Shown here piece after piece: positions 5,531-35,574 of a DNA stretch of 64,000 bases. Under the pieces are notes generated by a model that was not told the DNA's origin, ran no database searches, and saw only the letters and a list, made by a program, of their open reading frames with translations. The position numbers and the translations under genes were made by a program. The first letter of the stretch is position 1; the number at the start of each line of letters is the position of its first letter. Origin of the DNA: Methanococcus aeolicus Nankai-3 (lineage in GTDB: Archaea; AGJL01; Methanococci; Methanococcales; Methanococcaceae); contig NC_009635.1 in the NCBI RefSeq assembly GCF_000017185.1, positions 436,563-500,562 of the forward strand, in the 5' to 3' direction.

Positions 5531-6703
5531 ATGAAAAATAGAAAAATTAAAAAAGTTGCAGTTGTTACAGGAACTCGTGCAGAGTATGGAATTTTGAAAC
5601 CATTGATTGAAAAAATTAATGACGATAATGACTTAGAATTGCAATTAATGGTCACTGGTATGCATTTGTTAAAAAAATTTGGATACTCTATAAAAGAAAT
5701 AGAAAACGATGGGTTTCCAATAGCTTCAAAAATAAGAATGTATGATGAAGACTCCCTTGGGGAATTGAGTTATCATGGTGTTTCATTAGGTAGGGCAGTT
5801 TCTGAATTCACAAGAGAATTTGTATATCTAAATCCAGATATTGTTTTAGTTATTGGGGATAGATTAGAAGCATTAGCTCCTGTATTATCGGCATCAACTT
5901 TAAATATTCCAATTGGGCACATTCATGCAGGGGATAGTACAGACAGTGGACATATTGATGAACAAATTAGATTCGCCATTTCAAGATTTTCCCATTTATT
6001 ATTTGCACCAACTGAAAAGTGTGTAGAACGTTTAACAAAAATGGGGGAAGAACCATGGAGGGCATATAATGTTGGAGCGTTGGGTTTGGATAGTATTTTA
6101 TCATACAAGCCATTAACTAAAGAGGAATTATTTAAAAAATTAAATCTTAATGGAGATAATCCAGTAGCAATCATTATATTTCATCCTGTAATTCATGAAT
6201 ACTCAACAATTGACCATCAAATAGAAAGCATTATGAAAGCGGTAATCGAAACAAAAATAAATACAGTAGTTATTTATCCAAATAATGACTTAGGCAGTAA
6301 GAAAATTATTGAAATTATTAAAAAATATTCTAATTTTGAAAATATTAAATTATTTGAGAATTTGGAGCACAATATATATATAAGTTTAATGTATCATGCT
6401 AATCTAATGATTGGAAATTCAAGTAGTGGGATAATTGAAGCACCATCATTAGGATTGCCTGTTATAAATGTAGGAAGTAGAAATACTGGGAGGGAACATG
6501 GGGACAATGTCTTATTTGTAAAACCAGTCAGTAAGGAGATTGTTGAAGCTATTAATAAGGCATTGTATGATATTGACTTCATTGAAAAAGTTAAAAAGAA
6601 AAACAATCCCTGGGGAGATGGGAAAACCAGCGAAAGACTGGTTAATATTTTAAAAAATACTGAAATTAATGAGCATTTTATGAGAAAGAGAATCCTATAT
6701 TAA
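5531..6703 (+). CDS. neuC: UDP-N-acetylglucosamine 2-epimerase, hydrolysing (NeuC family)
   Basis: The protein of 390 residues is full length for the NeuC/WecB fold (GT-B-like). It begins KKVAVVTGTRAEYGILKPLI, has VIGDRLEALAPVLSA, HIHAGD with nearby E/H residues, and the late GNSSSGIIEAPSLGLPVINVGSRNTGR nucleotide-binding segment typical of hydrolysing epimerases. It releases UDP while inverting C2, giving ManNAc or the 2,4-diacetamido analogue used by NeuB. It follows a GGTGGG ribosome site. Because a 4,6-dehydratase and aminotransferase are also present, the LegG-type substrate is more likely than UDP-GlcNAc. Confidence 0.93.
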   Translation: MKNRKIKKVAVVTGTRAEYGILKPLIEKINDDNDLELQLMVTGMHLLKKFGYSIKEIENDGFPIASKIRMYDEDSLGELSYHGVSLGRAVSEFTREFVYLNPDIVLVIGDRLEALAPVLSASTLNIPIGHIHAGDSTDSGHIDEQIRFAISRFSHLLFAPTEKCVERLTKMGEEPWRAYNVGALGLDSILSYKPLTKEELFKKLNLNGDNPVAIIIFHPVIHEYSTIDHQIESIMKAVIETKINTVVIYPNNDLGSKKIIEIIKKYSNFENIKLFENLEHNIYISLMYHANLMIGNSSSGIIEAPSLGLPVINVGSRNTGREHGDNVLFVKPVSKEIVEAINKALYDIDFIEKVKKKNNPWGDGKTSERLVNILKNTEINEHFMRKRILY

Positions 6704-7431: not shown

Positions 7432-8088
7432 ATGAAAATTTTAATCATAGCACCACATCCAGACGATGAGGTCTTAGGTTGTGGTGGAACAATAGCAAAA
7501 CATTCTGAAAACGGAGATGATGTTTATTTAATAATTGCTACAAAGGCATACACGCCAGATTGGACAGATGAATATATAACAAATAAAGAAAAAGAAATAA
7601 AAAAATCAAATGAAATTTTAGGAATAAAAAAAACTTATTTTTTAAATTATCCAACAGTTAAATTGGATACAATTCCACAAAAAGAGTTAAACGATTCAAT
7701 ATCAAAAATAGTTGATAAAATAAAACCAGATATTGCATATATTCCATTTAAAGGAGATTTGAATAAAGACCATCGTTTATTGTTTGAAGCTTCGTTAGTT
7801 GCTTTAAGACCATTAAATCATAAGGTTAAAAAAATATTATCCTATGAAATTCTCTCGGAAACAGAATGGGGACAAGAAATAGAAATTTTTAAACCAAATG
7901 TATATGTCGATATAACAAAAACTTTTAACAAAAAAATTGAAGCAATGAAAGCATACAAAAGTGAATTAAGGGAATTCCCGCATCCGAGGTCTGTGGATGC
8001 AATAGAAACATTGACGAAAAAGAGAGGTTCAGAGATTGGGATTAAATATGCTGAAAGTTTTTACTTAATAAGAGAAATTCAGGGATAA
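7432..8088 (+). CDS. PIG-L/LmbE family zinc deacetylase
   Basis: The N-terminal zinc-binding motif APHPDDEVLGCGGTI is diagnostic of the PIG-L/LmbE N-deacetylase fold, and the third metal ligand is in NKDHRLLFEA. At 218 residues it has the family's normal size. Family members remove N-acetyl groups from GlcNAc-type sugars. It is followed two bases later by a hexapeptide acyltransferase, so the pair may swap an acetyl group for another acyl group on an amino sugar. That exchange is an inference from adjacency. Confidence 0.9.
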   Translation: MKILIIAPHPDDEVLGCGGTIAKHSENGDDVYLIIATKAYTPDWTDEYITNKEKEIKKSNEILGIKKTYFLNYPTVKLDTIPQKELNDSISKIVDKIKPDIAYIPFKGDLNKDHRLLFEASLVALRPLNHKVKKILSYEILSETEWGQEIEIFKPNVYVDITKTFNKKIEAMKAYKSELREFPHPRSVDAIETLTKKRGSEIGIKYAESFYLIREIQG

Positions 8089-8090
8089 CA

Positions 8091-8519
8091 ATGAGATTTA
8101 AAAATTGGAAATTTCCAAAAATCGAGCATAATAAACCAACAGAATATAACTGGGTTGTTCAATACCCTGAAAATTTAGAGCTCGGAAAATACACAGATAT
8201 TGGAGCATTTACATATATAAATTCAAAGTATGGGGTTAAAATTGATGAGTATGTGCAAATAGGTTCTCATTGTTCTATATACTCTGTTTCAACAATAGAT
8301 AATAAAAAAGGAAAAGTGATAATAAATAAAAATGCAAGAATCGGAAGCCATAGTGTAATTATGCCAAATGTTGAAATTGGAGAAAATTCTATTATCGGAG
8401 CATTTAGTTTTGTAAATAAAAACATTCCACCGAATACATTAGCTTATGGCGTTCCAGTGAAACTTATTAGGAAACTAACTGATGAAGAAATTAAAAAGTT
8501 ATTGAAGGAGATAGAATGA
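8091..8519 (+). CDS. Hexapeptide-repeat acyltransferase (short)
   Basis: The 142-residue protein is mostly left-handed beta-helix repeats (LGKYTDIGAFTYI, IDEYVQIGSHCSIY, INKNARIGSHSVIMPNVEIGENSIIGAFSFVNKNIPP) with the usual AYGVPVKLIRKL end. This is the acetyl-CoA:sugar acetyltransferase architecture, as in PglD/LegH-type or WbbJ-type enzymes. It overlaps the following aminotransferase by four bases. N-acylation of the C4 amino sugar made by that aminotransferase is a plausible role. Confidence 0.85.
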   Translation: MRFKNWKFPKIEHNKPTEYNWVVQYPENLELGKYTDIGAFTYINSKYGVKIDEYVQIGSHCSIYSVSTIDNKKGKVIINKNARIGSHSVIMPNVEIGENSIIGAFSFVNKNIPPNTLAYGVPVKLIRKLTDEEIKKLLKEIE

Positions 8520-9640
8520 AAATTCCACTATTTAAAATTTACTGGGATAATGAAGATATTAAATCTGTTGAAAAAATTATAAAATCGGGCATGTTTTGGA
8601 GCTCCGGTAATGAGATTGAAGAGCTCGAAAATAAGATATCAGAATATATTGGTTCAAAATATTGTGTTACTTTCAACTCAGGAGGTTCTGCACTACATGC
8701 TTTAATGAAATCTTATGGATTTAAAGAAGGGGACGAAATAATTGTCCCATCATTTACTTTCATAGCAACAGCAATGGCTCCATTATATGTTGGAGCAAAA
8801 CCCATATTTGCTGATATTGAAGAGGAAACACTTGGATTAAATCCTGATGATGTTTTAGAGAAAATAACAAATAAAACAAAGGCAATCCTGCCAATTCATT
8901 ATGGAGGAGTGCCCTGCAAAATAAAAGAGCTTAAAGAGATTGCCGATGATTATGATTTAGTTTTGATAGAGGACGCAGCAGAGGCATTTGGGGCAAAAAT
9001 TGATGATAAAAATGTGGGAACTTTTGGGGATTCGGCAATATTCAGCTTTTGTCAAAATAAAATCTTTACAACAGGCGAGGGGGGATGCATAACCACCAAT
9101 AACAAAGAACTATATGAAAAATTAAAGCTTATCGTATCCTATGGTAGAATATCGGAAGGGAATTATTTTGTTGGACAATCAAAAACTGATTATGTTGATA
9201 TTGGATACAATTGGAGACTATCGACCATTTTAGCATCTCTTGGAATTTCTCAGTTAAATAAAGTTGATAAATTAATAGAATTAAGGAGAAAAAATGCAGA
9301 ATATTTAAACACTGAGCTCAGTAAAATAAAAGATGTAAATATAATGCCTGTCCCGAATAATTACTTTGCAGTTTATCAGTTATACAGCATTATTTTGAAT
9401 AATGAATATATTAGGAATGAATTAATGAACTATTTAAAAGAGAAAAATATTTCAACAAAAATTTACTTTGAACCCTGTCATGAATACACTGTATTTAAAA
9501 AATTTGTAAATAATATAAACTTACCAACAACACAGCAAATATCTTCAAAAATATTGACACTCCCCATATATCCAAACATGACTAAAAATGAATTAAATTA
9601 TATCATTGATACAATAAAAGAATTTTTTGAAGGGCGATGA
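8516..9640 (+). CDS. DegT/DnrJ/EryC1 PLP-dependent sugar aminotransferase
   Basis: The protein of 374 residues shows the DegT family pattern: FWSSGNEIEELE start, FNSGGSALHALM cofactor phosphate site, IVPSFTFIATA, IEDAAEAFGA aspartate, and FSFCQNKIFTTGEGG with the PLP lysine. It would aminate the 4-keto sugar from the adjacent 4,6-dehydratase, as LegC or PseC do. It contains the only GGAGCTCC octamer in the first 14.6 kb. The exact stereochemistry of amination is not readable from the sequence. Confidence 0.92.
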   Translation: MKIPLFKIYWDNEDIKSVEKIIKSGMFWSSGNEIEELENKISEYIGSKYCVTFNSGGSALHALMKSYGFKEGDEIIVPSFTFIATAMAPLYVGAKPIFADIEEETLGLNPDDVLEKITNKTKAILPIHYGGVPCKIKELKEIADDYDLVLIEDAAEAFGAKIDDKNVGTFGDSAIFSFCQNKIFTTGEGGCITTNNKELYEKLKLIVSYGRISEGNYFVGQSKTDYVDIGYNWRLSTILASLGISQLNKVDKLIELRRKNAEYLNTELSKIKDVNIMPVPNNYFAVYQLYSIILNNEYIRNELMNYLKEKNISTKIYFEPCHEYTVFKKFVNNINLPTTQQISSKILTLPIYPNMTKNELNYIIDTIKEFFEGR

Positions 9641-16941: not shown

Positions 16942-17943
16942 CTAAATATTATTATTTTTTTTAGAAATATTTTCTAACTTCTTGTACAAATTATTTTTTT
17001 CGTCATATATAATCTCCATATGTGGATAAGCTATATTGACATCTGGTTCGGGCCCTATTTTTTCAAGAATTCTCTGCGTAATTTGGGTTTTTATTAGTGC
17101 CCATTCCAACGAATTTACTAGATATCTAACTTTTATTTTTATTCCATTCTCAAATAAACTTATACGAATCATGGGTTTTGGATTTGTCTTATTTTTCGCA
17201 AATTGTCGGGGTCGCGATTCCCAAATTTTTGCCAATCTTCGCATATCCTCCCCTACAATCCCATCTGCGGCCTCAAAAACTAACTTCTCGGCCTTTTTCC
17301 AATTACTTTCGTAAGTAATGGCTATTTCTACACTGTCCCAAATGTAGTGGGAACCTTTTGTATAATTTATTATGGCATTTGTTAATACAAATGCATTTGG
17401 AATAACTAAATTTCGTCCTGATGGCTCCATATCCACTTCACTTAAATAAATATGCATGGTGTCTATTTTATAAACATCACCCATACCAACGCCTTTAATA
17501 TTTATTCTATCATTTATTTTAAATGGTCGAGTTACGACAATATTGACCCAACCTGCAAAATTCATAATTGGTCTTTGTAGTGCAAAAGTAATCCCTGCCC
17601 CAATAAGCCCAAGAGACATTATTAATGAACCCAATCCTTGATATAAAATAGATACGGCAACCAATATTGTGGTAAACCATGTAATATACTTGAATACCGA
17701 CCCCACAACAGGATAATCTCTTAGTTCCCCTTTTTTTTCAAAAAATCTTCGCAGGAGCTCCAAGGATATATCAAGAAATATCATCGTTCCAATAAATAAT
17801 ATTATTAATACCAATATATTACTATAATATTTTTCTAAATTTAACAGATAAGAATATATATTTAGATAGGTTCCCAAAAAATATGCTATAATAATTAATG
17901 CAAATATTTTCATTAAAAATTTTAATTTTAATTTGTTGTCCAT
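16942..17943 (-). CDS. Small-conductance mechanosensitive channel (MscS family)
   Basis: Four or five hydrophobic segments fill the first 140 residues; the pore helix is LGLIGAGITFALQRPIMNFAGWVNIVVTRPFKINDRI, the typical MscS TM3-to-beta-domain transition. A cytoplasmic beta and alpha/beta domain follows (NAFVLTNAIINYTKG). ATG 17943 is chosen because GTGGGG precedes it; a GTG at 17955 would add four residues. It is convergent with glmM and independent of it. The channel releases solutes on membrane tension. Confidence 0.9.
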   Translation of the reverse strand: MDNKLKLKFLMKIFALIIIAYFLGTYLNIYSYLLNLEKYYSNILVLIILFIGTMIFLDISLELLRRFFEKKGELRDYPVVGSVFKYITWFTTILVAVSILYQGLGSLIMSLGLIGAGITFALQRPIMNFAGWVNIVVTRPFKINDRINIKGVGMGDVYKIDTMHIYLSEVDMEPSGRNLVIPNAFVLTNAIINYTKGSHYIWDSVEIAITYESNWKKAEKLVFEAADGIVGEDMRRLAKIWESRPRQFAKNKTNPKPMIRISLFENGIKIKVRYLVNSLEWALIKTQITQRILEKIGPEPDVNIAYPHMEIIYDEKNNLYKKLENISKKNNNI

Positions 17944-18112: not shown

Positions 18113-18886
18113 CTATTCAGATATATTTTCGCATAAATATTTTAAAGCATCCTCCTCCATAAAGTGCAAATTTCCAGTGAATATTATGCAATGTAATGGA
18201 GCTCCGAAATCATATTCCAATAAATCCCCTATTTTTCCATATACCATTTTAGGTTTTAAACTTCCCGCTCTTGCAACAACTACAACCTTTGTATCTTTAT
18301 TTAATATATTTTCATTTCTTTTTTCTTCAATTTTCAATAATACTTCAAGTCCTTCGTTTGCAGTCATAAATCGTGTGTTATGTGCCTGAATATCCAAAAG
18401 ACATAGCGTATGATATCCCATTTTTGAGTTTTCTTTTATAACATCGTAGGGGGTTTCAGGGAAATAATTTGGCTCTGGAAATACTATGGAAGTGGTTTTT
18501 CCAAATTTATATAATTGTAATCCGGTTATACCAATTGCCGAATATATAGATGGTGCATTTAATATAATTACTTCAATTCCTTTCTTTTTAGCTTCAATTG
18601 CAATATCAATATGAGTTGTTGCCACCATTGGGTCTCCTGCTGTAAGAAACATTATATCTTTATCTTTACTTTCATTAATTAACTTTTCTGTTTCTAACTC
18701 AACTTTTTCCCTATCCAATATTGTTATTTCTTTTCCAAGTGTTTCCTCTATTTTTTCTATCGTGGTGCCCGTTAAAATAGCAGTATAAAATTCTGCATAT
18801 ATTTTATCTGCCTTTTTAGCAAATTCAACTGTTTTTAGTGTTGTGTCTTTTTCATCATATAATCCTAATCCTGCCAATATAATCAT
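18113..18886 (-). CDS. dphB: Diphthine synthase
   Basis: This SAM-dependent tetrapyrrole-methylase-fold enzyme methylates the elongation factor 2 histidine-derived side chain to build diphthamide. The family motifs are present: IILAGLGLYDEKDTTLKT at the N-terminus, KADKIYAEFYTA, FLTAGDPMVATTH, NAPSIYSAIGITGLQLYKFG and VVARAGS near the C-terminus. The 257-residue length is typical for archaeal DphB. A AGGTGATATT site precedes ATG. It is monocistronic as far as visible. Confidence 0.95.
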   Translation of the reverse strand: MIILAGLGLYDEKDTTLKTVEFAKKADKIYAEFYTAILTGTTIEKIEETLGKEITILDREKVELETEKLINESKDKDIMFLTAGDPMVATTHIDIAIEAKKKGIEVIILNAPSIYSAIGITGLQLYKFGKTTSIVFPEPNYFPETPYDVIKENSKMGYHTLCLLDIQAHNTRFMTANEGLEVLLKIEEKRNENILNKDTKVVVVARAGSLKPKMVYGKIGDLLEYDFGAPLHCIIFTGNLHFMEEDALKYLCENISE

Positions 18887-19148
18887 AATATCACCTAAAT
18901 TTTTATTAATTCAATTGTTATAGTAAATTGACGAACATTTTTCATAATGTTATGTGTAAAGAGAAAACATAATTTCTCCAAATATCAATTCAATATAATT
19001 CACGGAGCTCCTGAACGCACTATATATGTTTGAATACATTATATATACATATACATATGATATATGGTGTATATTCCAGTTTGTTTATAATTATTATGCG
19101 GCATATACGCTATTATATATATTTATTTGTTAAAATGGTGATACTAAT

Positions 19149-30527: not shown

Positions 30528-30546
30528 AATTTGATGGGTGCAATTT

Positions 30547-31728
30547 ATGAATAATAACGAATTTCGACTATTGTTTAAGCTTTTTGTTTCATTGGTATCA
30601 TTATCTCTTATTTATACAGTATTTCCGTATTTAGATGTTTTAGCCTTATCCTGTGCATTGGCATATATGTCAAAACCAGTGTATGATAAATTAAAACCAA
30701 AATTTGGGAGCTCCATATCTTCAATGATGTGTTTATTGTTTGTCATAGTGCCAATGGTGATTATTGGATTTATTATATTATATCAAATATTGGAGTTCTT
30801 ACAGTTTTTAAATCTAAATCAATTAGATATACAAAATTTAAATTTAATATCTTTGATAAATTATAAATTAAATTATTTATCCAATATTTTGGGATATAAT
30901 ATACCCATAAAATTGGAAGAAGAAAAATTATCTCAATATATTTCATTAATATTGTCCTATTTGGAACCCCACATATCCACAGCAGTATCTGGATTACTAT
31001 TATTGCCTGAAATAGCTATAAAGCTCATAATGGGAGTGTTTATAACATTTTACTTTTTAAAAGATGGATACCATATAAAAAATATTGTATTGGACAATAT
31101 TCCAACAGAATACCAGTTGAAAACTCAATTGTATTTAAAATATCTAAATGAATCCTATCAAAATTTATTTACTGGAACTGCATTAACCTCCGTCGCCATA
31201 GTTATTATATCATTTATTGGATATTTTATATTTGGAGTTCAAAATGCTTTATTATTATCCGTGCTTACTGGGATTTTTGCACTGTTGCCCATTGTTGGAG
31301 GATGGGGAGTATATATTCCACTTTCATTATATTATTTAATAATAGGAGATTTCGTTACAGCAATTGGAATATTTATATTTGGGTGGGTATTTTTATCCCT
31401 TGCTCCTGATTTTGTGATAAGACCCCATATAGTAAAAAAAGAAAGCGATGTTCATCCTGTGGTGGTGTTATTGGCATTTTTGGTTGCCCCTTTGACATTG
31501 GGAATTGCAGGATTTGCCATAGGGCCAATATTATTTGGAGCATTTGATGCATTATTTAAAGTAAAATCTAAAATAAAATATGTTGAAAATGAAAAAATAA
31601 AGGAGAATAATGCGAGTAATGAGAATGATATAAGCAATATAAGCGATGAGAATAATAGTAAATATGATAATAATAACAAAATAGAAGATAACAGCCAAAA
31701 TGGAAATAATAAAGATAGTAAAAATTAA
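30547..31728 (+). CDS. AI-2E family (UPF0118) membrane transporter
   Basis: The protein has about eight hydrophobic segments and the family's motif region LALSCALAYMSKPVYDKL near the start, with GIFALLPIVGGWGVYIPLSLYYLIIGDF and LAPDFVIRPHIVKKESDVHPVVVLLAFLVAPLTLGIAGFAIGPI near the end. Members are proposed exporters of small molecules or ion antiporters. The last 50 residues form a low-complexity N, D, S and K tail after the final helix. ATG 30547 follows GGGTG; the GTG at 30538 is less likely. Confidence 0.87.
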   Translation: MNNNEFRLLFKLFVSLVSLSLIYTVFPYLDVLALSCALAYMSKPVYDKLKPKFGSSISSMMCLLFVIVPMVIIGFIILYQILEFLQFLNLNQLDIQNLNLISLINYKLNYLSNILGYNIPIKLEEEKLSQYISLILSYLEPHISTAVSGLLLLPEIAIKLIMGVFITFYFLKDGYHIKNIVLDNIPTEYQLKTQLYLKYLNESYQNLFTGTALTSVAIVIISFIGYFIFGVQNALLLSVLTGIFALLPIVGGWGVYIPLSLYYLIIGDFVTAIGIFIFGWVFLSLAPDFVIRPHIVKKESDVHPVVVLLAFLVAPLTLGIAGFAIGPILFGAFDALFKVKSKIKYVENEKIKENNASNENDISNISDENNSKYDNNNKIEDNSQNGNNKDSKN

Positions 31729-31749
31729 AAAGAATAATACAATAATATT

Positions 31750-31870
31750 AGTGTGGTTCATATTACATATTCTTTAAATATCAACATATAATTTTATGAC
31801 AAATATATCTATCCATATAATAAATAAAACTTTAAAATTTAATATATTATGAATAATTTGACCCACCCTA
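31750..31870 (+). repeat. Inverted-repeat element, copy 1 (left flank of toxin cassette)
   Basis: About 121 bases bounded by AGTGTGGTTCATATTA and AATTTGACCCACCCT, which are near-inverted copies. The first 75 bases match the element at 34100 with one visible mismatch, and a further stretch is similar. It has no coding capacity and looks like a MITE. Confidence 0.65.
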
Positions 31871-32028
31871 TTATTATAATTCTATTTAATTTTTAATCCC
31901 TTAGAAAAATATATATACTAAAAATATATATATATATATATATATATGTGGGTAAATACCTATCTAATATTAATATTTAAATATCGCATAAATAACCTAC
32001 ACTACACATATATACTTTTTAAAATTTA
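31871..32028. repeat. AT dinucleotide tract in cassette leader
   Basis: The gap between the repeat and the toxin-like gene includes an uninterrupted (TA)n run of about 24 bases near 31925-31948 and a TATA-like stretch near 32008. It probably contains the promoter of the cassette, but no distinct operator is visible. Confidence 0.4.
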
Positions 32029-32044
32029 GGAGGTGAATTCAACG

Positions 32045-33475
32045 ATGTTGAGAAAATCTTTTACTATTTTATTGGCAATTCTTCTTTTAGCATCTCCAGT
32101 TAGTGCATTTTTTTCTTTCGATTTTTCAATATCTCAAAGTAGTGCAATTACAGGAGCTACAATTGCGACAGAGGCAATTGCAGATACGATGGTTAGTAAT
32201 TACATAGATGAAAACCACCCAGAATATTCAGGTGCATATACTGCTGTTTCTTTGATATTTGACCCTATGGGAAAGATAGTTGGTAAATTATCTTCAAATG
32301 GAGTAAAATATGCTAATAAATTATATGAATATTCCAAGAAGGCAGATAATGGAAAAAATATTGTAAATTCTGATGATTTAAATAAAATATTTGACAAAGA
32401 CATAATTGAAGAGTTCGCAAAGAAAGAAAGCAAAGGATATAGTCCAAAGACAGTTGCAGGTAATGCTGTTAATCTCTTAGACGAAGGAGTTGAACCAGAG
32501 AATATTAACAAACTGTTTAAAGATGCAGTTAAAAATGATAAAAAACTCGGTTGGATAGATAACAGAATATCTAAACTCAAAGATAAAGGAGTAGAAATAA
32601 AAACAACAAACAACATCATCAAAAACAGTGATAAACCAAATAATGCTCTTAAAAAAGCAGTAGATGAAACTAATAAATTATCTAAGATGGGAATATCCAA
32701 AAGTTCCATCTCTAAAATAACTAAAAATGCTAACAATATAGATGATTTAACAAAGCAAAGAAAAGTTATTGGAGATTTAAAAAGAAGAAAGATTAGTAAA
32801 GAAGCCATAAATAAACTAATAGAAAATGGTTATGATTTAGAAAAATCAAGAGATGTGATTAAAGAGTTAAGAAATAAAGGAATAAAAACTAAGACAATAA
32901 ATAAACTAATAGAAAATGGTTATGATGTAACAAAATTCAATAAAGAATTTAAAGCTATAACTAACTCAGACCCTAAACTAATGAAAAAATTGGCAAAATA
33001 CATCAATAGCTGGGATATTAAAAGAATTAATCCATTAGATGTTTCAGGAGGAAGCCAGAAATTGGTTAAAGTGTTTAATGCCAGAGGAATCAGGACAATT
33101 GTTAAAGATAAAGATACGGGAGAAATTAGGGGGGAAGTAAATAATTTTGCTGTGCTTAAAGTAGGAAATGATAAATTTGGCTTAAAACATATTATTAATA
33201 GACATGAGGCAGATTTTAAAAAAATATTTAATATTAAAGAAGATGATGAGATAATCAAAAAAATAAAAGAAACTCTTGAAAGTCCAAGTGATAAACCGAA
33301 ATATGGGCTTAACCCAAAAATTGGAAAGTATGGAAAATATGAATACCATATATATAAAAAGTTTGGTGATAATCAATATCTACTTATAGCTCTCGATGAT
33401 TCTGGAAGTATAACTACTGCAATCCCTACAACTAAATATTCTAAAGTAGAAACTTTTATGGATGGTTTGGAATAA
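32045..33475 (+). CDS. Secreted toxin-like protein with C-terminal BECR-type nuclease-like domain
   Basis: A classical signal peptide (RKSFTILLAILLLASPVSA) begins the 476-residue protein. Residues 25-360 are helical and lysine-rich, with internal repeats; the 10-residue unit INKLIENGYD occurs twice from an identical 30-base stretch near 32810 and 32902. The last 110 residues are distinct: KFGLKHIINRHEADF, a charged helix, then GKYEYHIYKKFGDNQYLLIALDDSGSITTAIPTTKY. The HIxxRH start and the ITTAxPT end resemble the PBECR/Barnase-EndoU-ColicinD-RelE fold of polymorphic toxins, so H, R, H and T are candidate catalytic residues. ATG 32045 has a perfect GGAGGTGA site. A nuclease activity is inferred, not shown. 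The downstream gene may be its immunity partner. Confidence 0.72.
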   Translation: MLRKSFTILLAILLLASPVSAFFSFDFSISQSSAITGATIATEAIADTMVSNYIDENHPEYSGAYTAVSLIFDPMGKIVGKLSSNGVKYANKLYEYSKKADNGKNIVNSDDLNKIFDKDIIEEFAKKESKGYSPKTVAGNAVNLLDEGVEPENINKLFKDAVKNDKKLGWIDNRISKLKDKGVEIKTTNNIIKNSDKPNNALKKAVDETNKLSKMGISKSSISKITKNANNIDDLTKQRKVIGDLKRRKISKEAINKLIENGYDLEKSRDVIKELRNKGIKTKTINKLIENGYDVTKFNKEFKAITNSDPKLMKKLAKYINSWDIKRINPLDVSGGSQKLVKVFNARGIRTIVKDKDTGEIRGEVNNFAVLKVGNDKFGLKHIINRHEADFKKIFNIKEDDEIIKKIKETLESPSDKPKYGLNPKIGKYGKYEYHIYKKFGDNQYLLIALDDSGSITTAIPTTKYSKVETFMDGLE

Positions 33476-33521
33476 ATTAAAAAATAATGAAATTTTTTAC
33501 ATTTAATTTTTTGGTGAAATT

Positions 33522-34052
33522 GTGGCAATAAACAAATGTTTGATTTTGGAAGTATATCCCTATGAATACGAATTGGGAGCAATACATAGTGGAGATATAG
33601 TATTTAAAGTTAAGGATATAGACTTAGAACTTGTGGGATTTAGCATAGATATAGATTTAATAAAATATGCTATGCAAAACATTGGAAAATACATTGAAAT
33701 GGACATATCAATAGATATCTCTAAAGGCATGAAGAAAATCGATGAAAAGAAAAAAACTATCGAACTATTAAAAAAAGAACCAAGACAGTCTAAATTTATG
33801 CCCTCTGATTGTGAATATGGAATTATTGGGAAAATTGTCTCAATGATATATTTAGACTTATCTAACGGAAATAAGGAATATTATAGTAGGATTGACTGTG
33901 GATGTTTAGTGGATTATCCGCTTTCTAAATCAGAAATAATGAAATTTGAAACTGGAGAATACAAAATAGGTGATTATGTAATGGTTGAATTAACAAAATT
34001 TGATGTTAATTTACCAAATATGTATGACTATAAAATTGTTGTCTATAAATAA
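33522..34052 (+). CDS. Small cytosolic protein, candidate immunity partner
   Basis: The 176-residue acidic-to-neutral protein has no signal peptide or membrane segment and no family I recognise. It appears beta-rich in both halves (CLILEVYPYEYELGAIHSGDIVFKV; EYKIGDYVMVELTKFDVN), with two nearby cysteines in RIDCGCLVDYPL. It starts at GTG 33522 behind GGTGAAATT, 46 bases after the toxin-like gene. The position directly after a secreted toxin-like gene, within the same repeat-bounded segment, suggests an immunity protein. This is inference from context only. Confidence 0.65.
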   Translation: MAINKCLILEVYPYEYELGAIHSGDIVFKVKDIDLELVGFSIDIDLIKYAMQNIGKYIEMDISIDISKGMKKIDEKKKTIELLKKEPRQSKFMPSDCEYGIIGKIVSMIYLDLSNGNKEYYSRIDCGCLVDYPLSKSEIMKFETGEYKIGDYVMVELTKFDVNLPNMYDYKIVVYK

Positions 34053-34099
34053 TACTTCATAGCAGGTCAAAATATATAACCTATACTAAATATAATATC

Positions 34100-34358
34100 A
34101 GTGTGGGTCATATTACATATTCTTTAAATATCAACATATAATTTTATGACAAATATATCTATCCATATATAAATGAAATTTTAAAATTTATAGTGTCCGA
34201 CATAATAAACTTAACTAATATATGTTTATAACTCATCGTTATCCCTATTTATTGTGTAGAAAGCATAAGTATCCATCCAAGTTTTATAGAATATAATTTA
34301 ATAGTTAATAAAGTTCCGTATTCAACTATAATTTAGTATGGATATTTGACCTACCCTA
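34100..34358 (+). repeat. Inverted-repeat element, copy 2 (right flank of toxin cassette)
   Basis: About 259 bases bounded by AGTGTGGGTCATATTA and TATTTGACCTACCCTA. The left 75 bases are nearly identical to copy 1 in the same orientation, after which it carries about 140 extra bases. This accounts for most of the 400-base gap before mfnD; nothing coding is seen there. Confidence 0.65.
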
Positions 34359-34456
34359 GAATAATACAATAATAGTAAATACAATAATAATTATGATTAA
34401 TAATTAAAATAATTAGAAAATAGAAATAAATAAAAAAATAAGCATATAATTAAATA

Positions 34457-35392
34457 TTATTCGGTATCTCCGCAATTTAAAATTTCATTATTTACTATAA
34501 ATTTTTTTCCTTTTTTAACTGTATATTTTAACCTATTTTTTAAAGCATTATTTACTAAAAGAGTAGATAACGAAGGATTAGTATCTATACCAATAATTGA
34601 AGTTGTAATTCTTGGATTTATTTCTAAAATATATATGTTTTCATTATTTATGATTACATCTACACCAACATATCCGTTAAATCCACCGATTGTTTGAATT
34701 GCTTTTTTGCACTGGTTTATTATTTCTTCTTTTAGTGGGTGGTCAATATTTGTCTCCCCTCCACAATAGCATTCTTTAATATATTGTTTATTTAAACATA
34801 ATGGATATATGGAATGTTCTCCAACGATAAAACTAACAGAATAACTTTCCCCTTCAATAAATTCTTGGATTATGCTATTATTATTTATTACCTGTCGTTC
34901 CCCTCCACAACCATCTATTTCCTTAACTATATATTTATCGGGTTGTAATGTTTTTGGTGTTTTTACTGAATCCTTTATTTTTAAGTAAGTTAAATATTTA
35001 TCTCCTGCTATTTCAACAGCTTTTGATGGAGCTCCTAAATTTATAGTATTTGAACTTTCCAATAATTTTGTTAAATCATATAAAATATTATCACATTCTG
35101 GGGCAATAATTAAACCATATTTTAAATTTGTGGTTGGTGAGTTGAGGAGCTCCTTAATTTTTAACTTATAATTTTGTCCTTCCTCTAATGCAATAATATT
35201 TAAATTTTTTTCCTGTTTGTAATTTTCCATTATTGTATCATAATATTTTATATCTACAATAGACAATACAGAATAGCCCTGTTTTAAAAAATCCTTTAAA
35301 AGTCTATCGAACATTAAACGCCCTTCTTCCAATATATTTTTATCTACAATTTCACCGCTACCTAGGGCATATTCAAAAAAATATATATCCAT
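34457..35392 (-). CDS. mfnD: Tyramine-L-glutamate ligase (methanofuran biosynthesis)
   Basis: This ATP-grasp enzyme joins tyramine to glutamate in methanofuran synthesis. Features matching MfnD are the N-terminus MDIYFFEYALGSG, EEGRLMFDRLLKDF, the IIAPECDNILYDLTKLLE segment, KTPKTLQPDKYIVKEIDGCGGE, IQEFIEGESYSVSFIVG, GYVGVDVIINNENIYILEINPRITTS. ATG 35392 with its GGTGAAATT site gives that N-terminus; upstream frame is non-coding. The identification rests on remembered similarity to the methanococcal enzyme and ATP-grasp motifs. Confidence 0.82.
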   Translation of the reverse strand: MDIYFFEYALGSGEIVDKNILEEGRLMFDRLLKDFLKQGYSVLSIVDIKYYDTIMENYKQEKNLNIIALEEGQNYKLKIKELLNSPTTNLKYGLIIAPECDNILYDLTKLLESSNTINLGAPSKAVEIAGDKYLTYLKIKDSVKTPKTLQPDKYIVKEIDGCGGERQVINNNSIIQEFIEGESYSVSFIVGEHSIYPLCLNKQYIKECYCGGETNIDHPLKEEIINQCKKAIQTIGGFNGYVGVDVIINNENIYILEINPRITTSIIGIDTNPSLSTLLVNNALKNRLKYTVKKGKKFIVNNEILNCGDTE

Positions 35393-35452
35393 AATTTCAC
35401 CATTATTAAAATAGTTATAGTTCGTTCGGGAAAAATATAATAAAGAAATAAA

Positions 35453-35574
35453 TATAGTCAATCTTCGAACTGTTTCACCCTATATTTTGTAAATAGGACT
35501 GTGTTATATTACTTCGTCTTATCGCACTTAATTATTTGGGACAATAAAGGGACAGTTTTTGAAGATTAACTATA
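35453..35574. repeat. MITE-like element, family TATAGTCAATCTTC
   Basis: The 122-base element begins TATAGTCAATCTTCGAAC and ends GGGACAGTTTTTGAAG then ATTAACTATA, so the ends are near-perfect inverted repeats of 14 bases. Related copies lie at 23103, 25883, 42852 and a solo end at 19558. It has no coding potential and occupies the gap between mfnD and moaE. Confidence 0.7.

What the first reader, a model, noticed from the sequence alone, without database searches (positions are those of the whole stretch)
31750..34358. Repeat-bounded secreted toxin-like gene with possible immunity partner
A 476-residue protein with a clear signal peptide, repetitive helical body and a C-terminal domain with HIxxRH and ITTAxPT features resembles polymorphic-toxin effectors (BECR/PBECR nuclease group). 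A 176-residue unknown cytosolic gene follows 46 bases later. The pair is framed by two direct copies of an inverted-repeat element and lacks the genome's GGAGCTCC octamer, so it looks acquired. Archaeal contact- or secretion-dependent toxins of this type are little described, and the partner seems to have no known family.
Basis: partly seen in the sequence, partly recalled or inferred. Interest (0 to 1): 0.87.

Follow-up and report, generated by a model that had tools for sequence, protein, structure and literature searches.

The report
Archaeal secreted polymorphic toxin with immunity
A methane-making archaeon carries a secreted toxin gene with a swappable tip, next to the gene that probably protects its owner, and the pair sits between two copies of a small mobile DNA element; such toxin sets are common in bacteria but rare and still barely tested by experiment in archaea.

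Summary
Window 32045-33475 encodes a 476-aa protein: signal peptide, conserved N-terminal body, about six helical-hairpin repeats, and a C-terminal BECR-like RNase domain (PBECR3 E=2e-5, PBECR1 E=4e-5, both below Pfam's curated cut-offs; AlphaFold order HHH-EEEE-H; conserved H382 and S455). The decisive evidence is comparative. The same N-terminal body (72-82% identical over its first 200 residues) occurs at a second locus in this genome and in four other Methanococcales genomes, each at a different site, with unrelated C-termini or truncated; identity collapses at residues 275-300. Downstream of relatives lie silent cassettes: toxin tips without signal peptide, each with an immunity gene. Four tip classes were found; three recur and keep the same immunity family each time. 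This is the diagnostic anatomy of a polymorphic toxin system. The 176-aa partner has no known family; its homologues follow only this tip class. The pair lies between two copies of a 115-130-bp MITE-like element whose outer flanks form a 17/20-bp direct repeat, so it looks like cargo of a composite element or an integration into a resident MITE. The missing GGAGCTCC octamer is not significant. Delivery, enzyme activity and toxin-partner binding are inferred.

The parts
31731..31750 (.). left outer flank AGAATAATACAATAATATTA; with 34358-34377 forms a 20-bp direct repeat (1 mismatch), target-site-duplication-like
   Evidence: (D14)
31751..31876 (+). MITE-like element copy 1 (imperfect terminal inverted repeats GTGTGGTTCAT...TTTGACCCACCCTA)
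32045..33475 (+). polymorphic toxin gene, 476 aa, ATG start with Shine-Dalgarno GGAGGTGA just upstream
32045..32107 (+). Sec-type signal peptide MLRKSFTILLAILLLASPVSA, conserved in six homologues
   Evidence: cleavage site inferred by eye
32108..32914 (+). conserved N-terminal body and about six helical-hairpin repeats of about 33 aa (aa 22-290); recombination boundary at aa 275-300
   Evidence: alignment; AF2 model (block pLDDT 87 or more for aa 121-290); DNA identity falls from 71-95% per block to about 35%
32897..33472 (+). exchangeable C-terminal module, class A (aa 285-476)
   Evidence: four class A modules in four genomes
33173..33472 (+). BECR-like nuclease domain (aa 377-476); conserved H382 (33188-33190) and S455 (33407-33409)
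   Evidence: active-site pattern from PMC5512222
33522..34052 (+). predicted cognate immunity protein, 176 aa, GTG start, no signal peptide, no known family
34101..34357 (+). MITE-like element copy 2, with an extra insertion of about 140 bp near its 3' end
34358..34377 (.). right outer flank AGAATAATACAATAATAGTA (partner of 31731-31750)

Best explanation
The locus is a working toxin-immunity unit of a Methanococcales polymorphic toxin system. The toxin is exported by Sec. A conserved N-terminal body with a helical-repeat stalk presents an exchangeable C-terminal metal-independent RNase of BECR type, with H382 and S455 as likely catalytic residues. The RNase kills or arrests related archaeal cells it enters, probably by cutting tRNA, rRNA or mRNA. 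The cytosolic 176-aa protein made from the next gene binds the nuclease domain and protects the producer and its kin. Tip and immunity gene are exchanged together by recombination inside the helical repeats, drawing on silent tip-immunity cassettes kept behind full-length genes (seen at the sister locus and in relatives). Here the pair was acquired between two copies of a MITE-like element, as a composite insertion or by crossover into a resident element. Shown: signal peptide by sequence, body/tip modularity, tip-immunity linkage, silent cassettes, predicted helix/strand order, purifying selection, repeat-flanked insertion. Inferred: RNase activity, target, neutralisation, delivery to neighbours.
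For: N-terminal body with 72-82% identity over 200 aa in 6 loci of 5 genomes at different chromosomal sites. Identity falls from 71-95% DNA per block to about 35% at aa 250-300. All-against-all comparison finds four tip classes; A, B and D recur and each is followed by its own immunity family; C was seen once. Own genome, second locus (L026): full-length gene with a PD-(D/E)xK-like tip and immunity gene, then a signal-less tip plus immunity gene, then a fragment. G035 carries the same tip (65% id) plus the same immunity protein (80%) on an unrelated dockerin-bearing N-terminus. PBECR3 2e-5 and PBECR1 4.2e-5 on the isolated domain; AF2 domain block pLDDT 66-90, order H-H-H-E-E-E-E-H. K381-H382-I383 and S455 invariant in four class A tips. 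dN/dS 0.15-0.29 for the body, 0.29 for tip A, 0.12-0.20 for the immunity gene. A class D immunity protein is 99% identical between G030 and G003, while GatB of this genome is only 70% and 83% identical to theirs, pointing to recent transfer. Flanking MITEs with a 17/20-bp outer direct repeat.
Against: Pfam scores stay below curated cut-offs (24.9 against 30; 24.4 against 27.6). Foldseek of the full model found no BECR protein among the listed PDB matches; the helical stalk dominated. No structure of the immunity protein was obtained (pLDDT 35). No known trafficking or target-entry domain was found. The G035 locus is a low-coverage MAG contig. No experiment shows secretion, toxicity or protection.
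Confidence: 0.87

Rival explanations
1. An ordinary intracellular type II toxin-antitoxin pair carried by a mobile element; the apparent signal peptide is only a membrane anchor and no other cell is attacked.
For: BECR folds occur in RelE/ParE toxins; weak ParE_toxin match (E=0.025); mobile, patchy, two-gene operon.
Against: Toxin-first order, conserved signal peptide and long body with exchanged tips, silent tip-immunity cassettes lacking the signal peptide are features of secreted polymorphic toxins, not of type II pairs; no DNA-binding domain in the partner.
Confidence: 0.06
2. A hypervariable surface or secreted recognition protein (VARTIG-like) whose variable C-terminus binds rather than cuts, with the downstream gene as an accessory.
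For: Archaeal VARTIG modules show similar N-constant/C-variable organisation (PMC8416519); a helical-repeat stalk could serve recognition.
Against: Two unrelated nuclease-like tip classes (BECR-like and PD-(D/E)xK-like with an E..D..ECK motif), an invariant catalytic-type His and Ser in class A, cytosolic partners in tip-specific pairing, no Ig domains.
Confidence: 0.05
3. A decayed remnant that is no longer used: a toxin pair stranded between two MITEs.
For: Several sister loci are truncated or broken (G016 lacks a tip; G014 is frameshifted or truncated, with a transposase inserted in an immunity gene).
Against: Both window genes are intact with good ribosome-binding sites and evolve under purifying selection against their G035 and own-genome homologues.
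Confidence: 0.04

Closest known systems
Classical polymorphic toxin systems / CDI (Zhang et al. 2012, PMC3482391)
   Same: Constant secreted N-terminus, exchangeable C-terminal toxin, adjacent downstream immunity gene, standalone tip-immunity cassettes, patchy spread
   Different: Archaeal; about 475 aa; helical-repeat body matching no known trafficking family; no RHS, filamentous haemagglutinin, LXG/WXG, MuF or HINT region found; flanked by MITEs
Archaeal polymorphic toxins named earlier (Methanosarcina acetivorans RHS, barnase-barstar of some methanoarchaea, Halogeometricum contractile-system toxins; PMC3482391, PMC11566945; wider survey by Makarova et al. 2019, not readable here)
   Same: Archaeal toxin-immunity modules with variable tips
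   Different: No RHS stalk or contractile-system linkage; body found only in Methanococcales among the genomes searched. Whether Makarova et al. 2019 list this family could not be checked
PBECR/BECR nucleases (PF18812, PF18809; PMC5512222), colicin D
   Same: N-terminal helix His, alcoholic residue on strand 4, helix followed by four strands
   Different: Below Pfam's curated cut-offs; on a Sec-secreted archaeal protein, not a phage polyvalent or MuF protein
VARTIG modules of Thermococcales (PMC8416519)
   Same: Archaeal, constant N-terminus with hypervariable C-terminus and linked downstream genes
   Different: No Ig domains; here the tips are nuclease-like and the partners cytosolic

Membership tests
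[quoted passage not shown]
Polymorphic toxin systems | Linked immunity gene directly downstream, specific to the tip class | tested here: met
   for linkage; binding itself not tested
Polymorphic toxin systems | Standalone toxin-tip/immunity cassettes | tested here: met
   L026, L028, L029 (and remnants in L027, L031); none beside the window copy itself
Polymorphic toxin systems | Secretion signal or trafficking domain at the N-terminus | tested here: inconclusive
   Signal peptide clear by sequence; no known trafficking domain found; export not shown
Polymorphic toxin systems | Toxicity neutralised by the cognate partner | not testable with these tools
   needs expression
PBECR1/PBECR3 (PF18809/PF18812) | Curated gathering score | tested here: not met
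   24.4 of 27.6 and 24.9 of 30 bits; so described as BECR-like, not filed as a member
[quoted passage not shown]
   AF2 model, secondary-structure order only; the Foldseek lists shown gave no BECR match
[quoted passage not shown]
   H382 and S455 invariant in four class A tips; H382 in helix 377-386, S455 at the start of strand 456-462
Type II toxin-antitoxin | Small cytosolic toxin, antitoxin with DNA-binding domain | tested here: not met
   476-aa secreted-type toxin; partner matches no known domain
VARTIG | Ig domains in the variable protein | tested here: not met
   no Ig match

The most novel reading that the evidence does not exclude
Methanococcales own a distinct class of polymorphic toxins: a short Sec-secreted body with a TALE/mTERF-like helical stalk (no known delivery family), with its own immunity families and a conserved inter-cassette spacer, whose toxin-immunity units also travel as cargo between MITE copies that make 14-20-bp target duplications.
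Probability: 0.4. Interest if true: 0.75.

Novelty: new variant of a known kind. Interest (0 to 1): 0.63.

Why it matters
Archaeal polymorphic toxins have been predicted, but a 2021 paper states that none had been characterised by experiment (PMC8416519); contractile-system antagonism has since been reported in a haloarchaeon (PMC11566945). This is a complete, intact set (constant body, two full-length genes with different tips, silent cassettes, cognate immunity genes) in one small genome of a methanogen order that has genetic tools. It makes three questions directly testable: how a wall-less, S-layered archaeon delivers and admits a protein toxin, whether methanogens police kin, and how toxin tips move between archaeal families.

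Tried and rejected
Octamer-depletion and base composition as signs of acquisition: not significant. OB-fold / exosome Csl4 kinship of the immunity protein (weak hit in G055): rejected by hhalign (probability 1.4%); Pfam gives only E=0.006 to an OB family for one homologue. Structure of the immunity protein: useless model. TRAPP subunit match of the immunity profile (E=0.005): judged chance. Foldseek of the toxin: best matches are BurrH/TALE and designed helical toroids (E about 3e-3, TM 0.13-0.22) and phage tape-measure proteins; taken as generic helical-repeat resemblance, not homology. G003:C57 weak body hit: no corresponding intact ORF listed, taken as chance. No relatives in plasmids, phages or viral contigs, nor of the N-terminal body in 138 genomes of two other phyla. 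No autonomous transposon with the MITE's ends was identified. A link between class A and class D tips (both possibly BECR) is not settled: they share only the helical-repeat lead-in by hhalign.

Full report
WHERE. The window is part of a single-contig 1,569,500-bp Methanococcales genome (the size matches Methanococcus aeolicus Nankai-3 from memory only). The finding lies between an AI-2E-family transporter gene (30538-31728) and an ATP-grasp gene (34457-35461).

OBSERVATION. The 476-aa toxin candidate starts at ATG 32045 behind a strong Shine-Dalgarno (GGAGGTGA), ends at 33475, and is followed after 46 nt by a GTG-start 176-aa gene. The repeat elements are real: copies at about 31751-31876 and 34101-34357, with single copies elsewhere in the genome at 591677 and 247131. 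The octamer argument is not significant.

WHAT IT IS. A search of 61 genomes found the N-terminal body again in this genome (L026) and in G003, G014, G016 and G030, while G035 shares only the C-terminus. Over the first 200 residues the other bodies are 72-82% identical to the window's. From residue 250-300 on, DNA identity falls from 71-95% per block to background. Of the other five bodies, two (own locus 2 and G030) carry a class B tip, one (G003) a class D tip, and two (G014, G016) are truncated before or without a tip. Behind full-length genes lie cassettes that begin inside the body or helical repeats, lack the signal peptide, and carry a tip plus an immunity gene. All-against-all comparison gives four tip classes. 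Class A (BECR-like) is followed by 147-176-aa partners of one family, class B (E..D..ECK, weak Tox-REase-3 match) by partners of about 212 aa, class C (seen once) by a 215-aa partner, and class D (HxWLRH, weak EndoU match in one member) by 196-216-aa partners. G035 carries the window's tip and immunity protein (65% and 80% identical) on a different N-terminus with a dockerin (E=5e-5) and a weak periplasmic-binding-protein match. That contig is from a low-coverage MAG, so it is supporting, not essential.

THE TOXIN DOMAIN. On the isolated domain Pfam gives PBECR3 2e-5 and PBECR1 4.2e-5, both under the curated cut-offs. AlphaFold with only five sequences models residues 84-320 as a helical superhelix (block pLDDT 87-96 between 121 and 290) and 377-476 as three helices, four strands and a helix (block pLDDT 66-90). 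[quoted passage not shown] H382 and S455 sit there and are invariant in four class A tips from four genomes. I therefore call it BECR-like and most probably an RNase.

THE PARTNER. It matches no family. Its relatives occur only with class A tips. It has no signal peptide and evolves under purifying selection (dN/dS 0.12-0.20). Linkage makes immunity the best reading; binding was not tested.

MOBILITY. The MITE family is 115-130 bp with imperfect terminal repeats. G011 of the same genus has about 12 copies, several with 14-16-bp exact flanking repeats. In this genome the two single copies are flanked by 20-bp and 16-bp exact repeats. The two copies here have none of their own, but their outer flanks share 17 bp exactly (20 with one mismatch), expected in about 3 of 10,000 random intergenic pairs. 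Either the unit copy1-toxin-immunity-copy2 inserted as one piece, or DNA carrying the pair and one element crossed into a resident element; the data do not separate these. Toxin and partner are absent within 1.5 kb of the ATP-grasp gene in the 29 relatives' loci inspected, although AroE, the 123-aa gene and ATP-grasp keep their order in G011. Body loci sit at different places in each genome. A class D immunity protein is 99% identical between G030 and G003, while GatB of this genome is 70% and 83% identical to theirs, which points to recent transfer across families.

HOW IT PROBABLY WORKS. Sec export, presentation on the helical stalk, entry into a neighbour by an unknown route, RNA cleavage, and protection of kin by the cytosolic partner. 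Tip exchange probably runs through the repeats, where the breakpoints fall and where a 40-nt stretch of the gene is repeated at 93% identity (D3). Export, entry, cleavage and protection are inferred.

NOVELTY. Polymorphic toxins are a known kind, and archaeal examples were named in 2012 (Methanosarcina RHS, barnase-barstar, Halogeometricum) and predicted more widely in 2019 (cited). The 2019 paper is not in the library, so I cannot say whether this family is in it. No searched paper links such a system to Methanococcus aeolicus, and the only match for Methanococcales with 'immunity protein' was the VARTIG paper; RHS-type proteins have been noted in M. maripaludis (PMC11452385). The body has no significant match in Pfam, NCBIfam, PHROGs or PADLOC and was found only in Methanococcales. 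I rate it a new variant of a known kind.

Noticed in passing
L028:15901-15949, 17500-17548, 18851-18899; L027:10160-10203; L031:4682-4724, 5939-5983; L029:10759-10799: A 44-49-nt spacer (T-rich tract then TATA-like stretch, TTTTCTTTTTTATTTTTAATTAGAATATTAATTTATATGTTTAAATAAA) follows immunity genes at cassette junctions in several genomes, 86-100% identical; absent behind the window's immunity gene. Terminator, promoter or recombination site unknown.
   Followed up: partly
L026:5586-9219 (- strand) (G000:C1 about 994-997 kb): Second toxin locus of the same genome: full-length gene with PD-(D/E)xK-like tip, a 212-aa immunity gene a few nt downstream, then a signal-less orphan tip with another ECK motif and its own partner.
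   Followed up: yes
L026:5138-5530 (- strand): A third cassette fragment made of helical repeats ending in a hydrophobic, membrane-like tail instead of a toxin domain.
   Followed up: no
G011 contig 2, e.g. L073-L083: About 12 copies of the same MITE in another species of the genus, many with 14-16-bp target duplications; no autonomous transposase with these ends identified. The long duplications recall casposons (from memory), not tested.
   Followed up: partly
L029:7345-9114: A transposase-like gene (7572-8540, - strand) splits a class D immunity gene in G014.
   Followed up: no
L081:378-2096: In G011 two inverted copies of the MITE flank a P-type ATPase gene, and neither copy has a flanking duplication of its own above chance.
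   Followed up: no
L031:758-2641: Dockerin-bearing surface-type protein with the same toxin tip: dockerin anchoring as a possible alternative way of displaying an archaeal toxin.
   Followed up: partly
window:34101-34357: Copy 2 of the MITE carries an extra insertion of about 140 bp of unknown origin near its 3' end.
   Followed up: no
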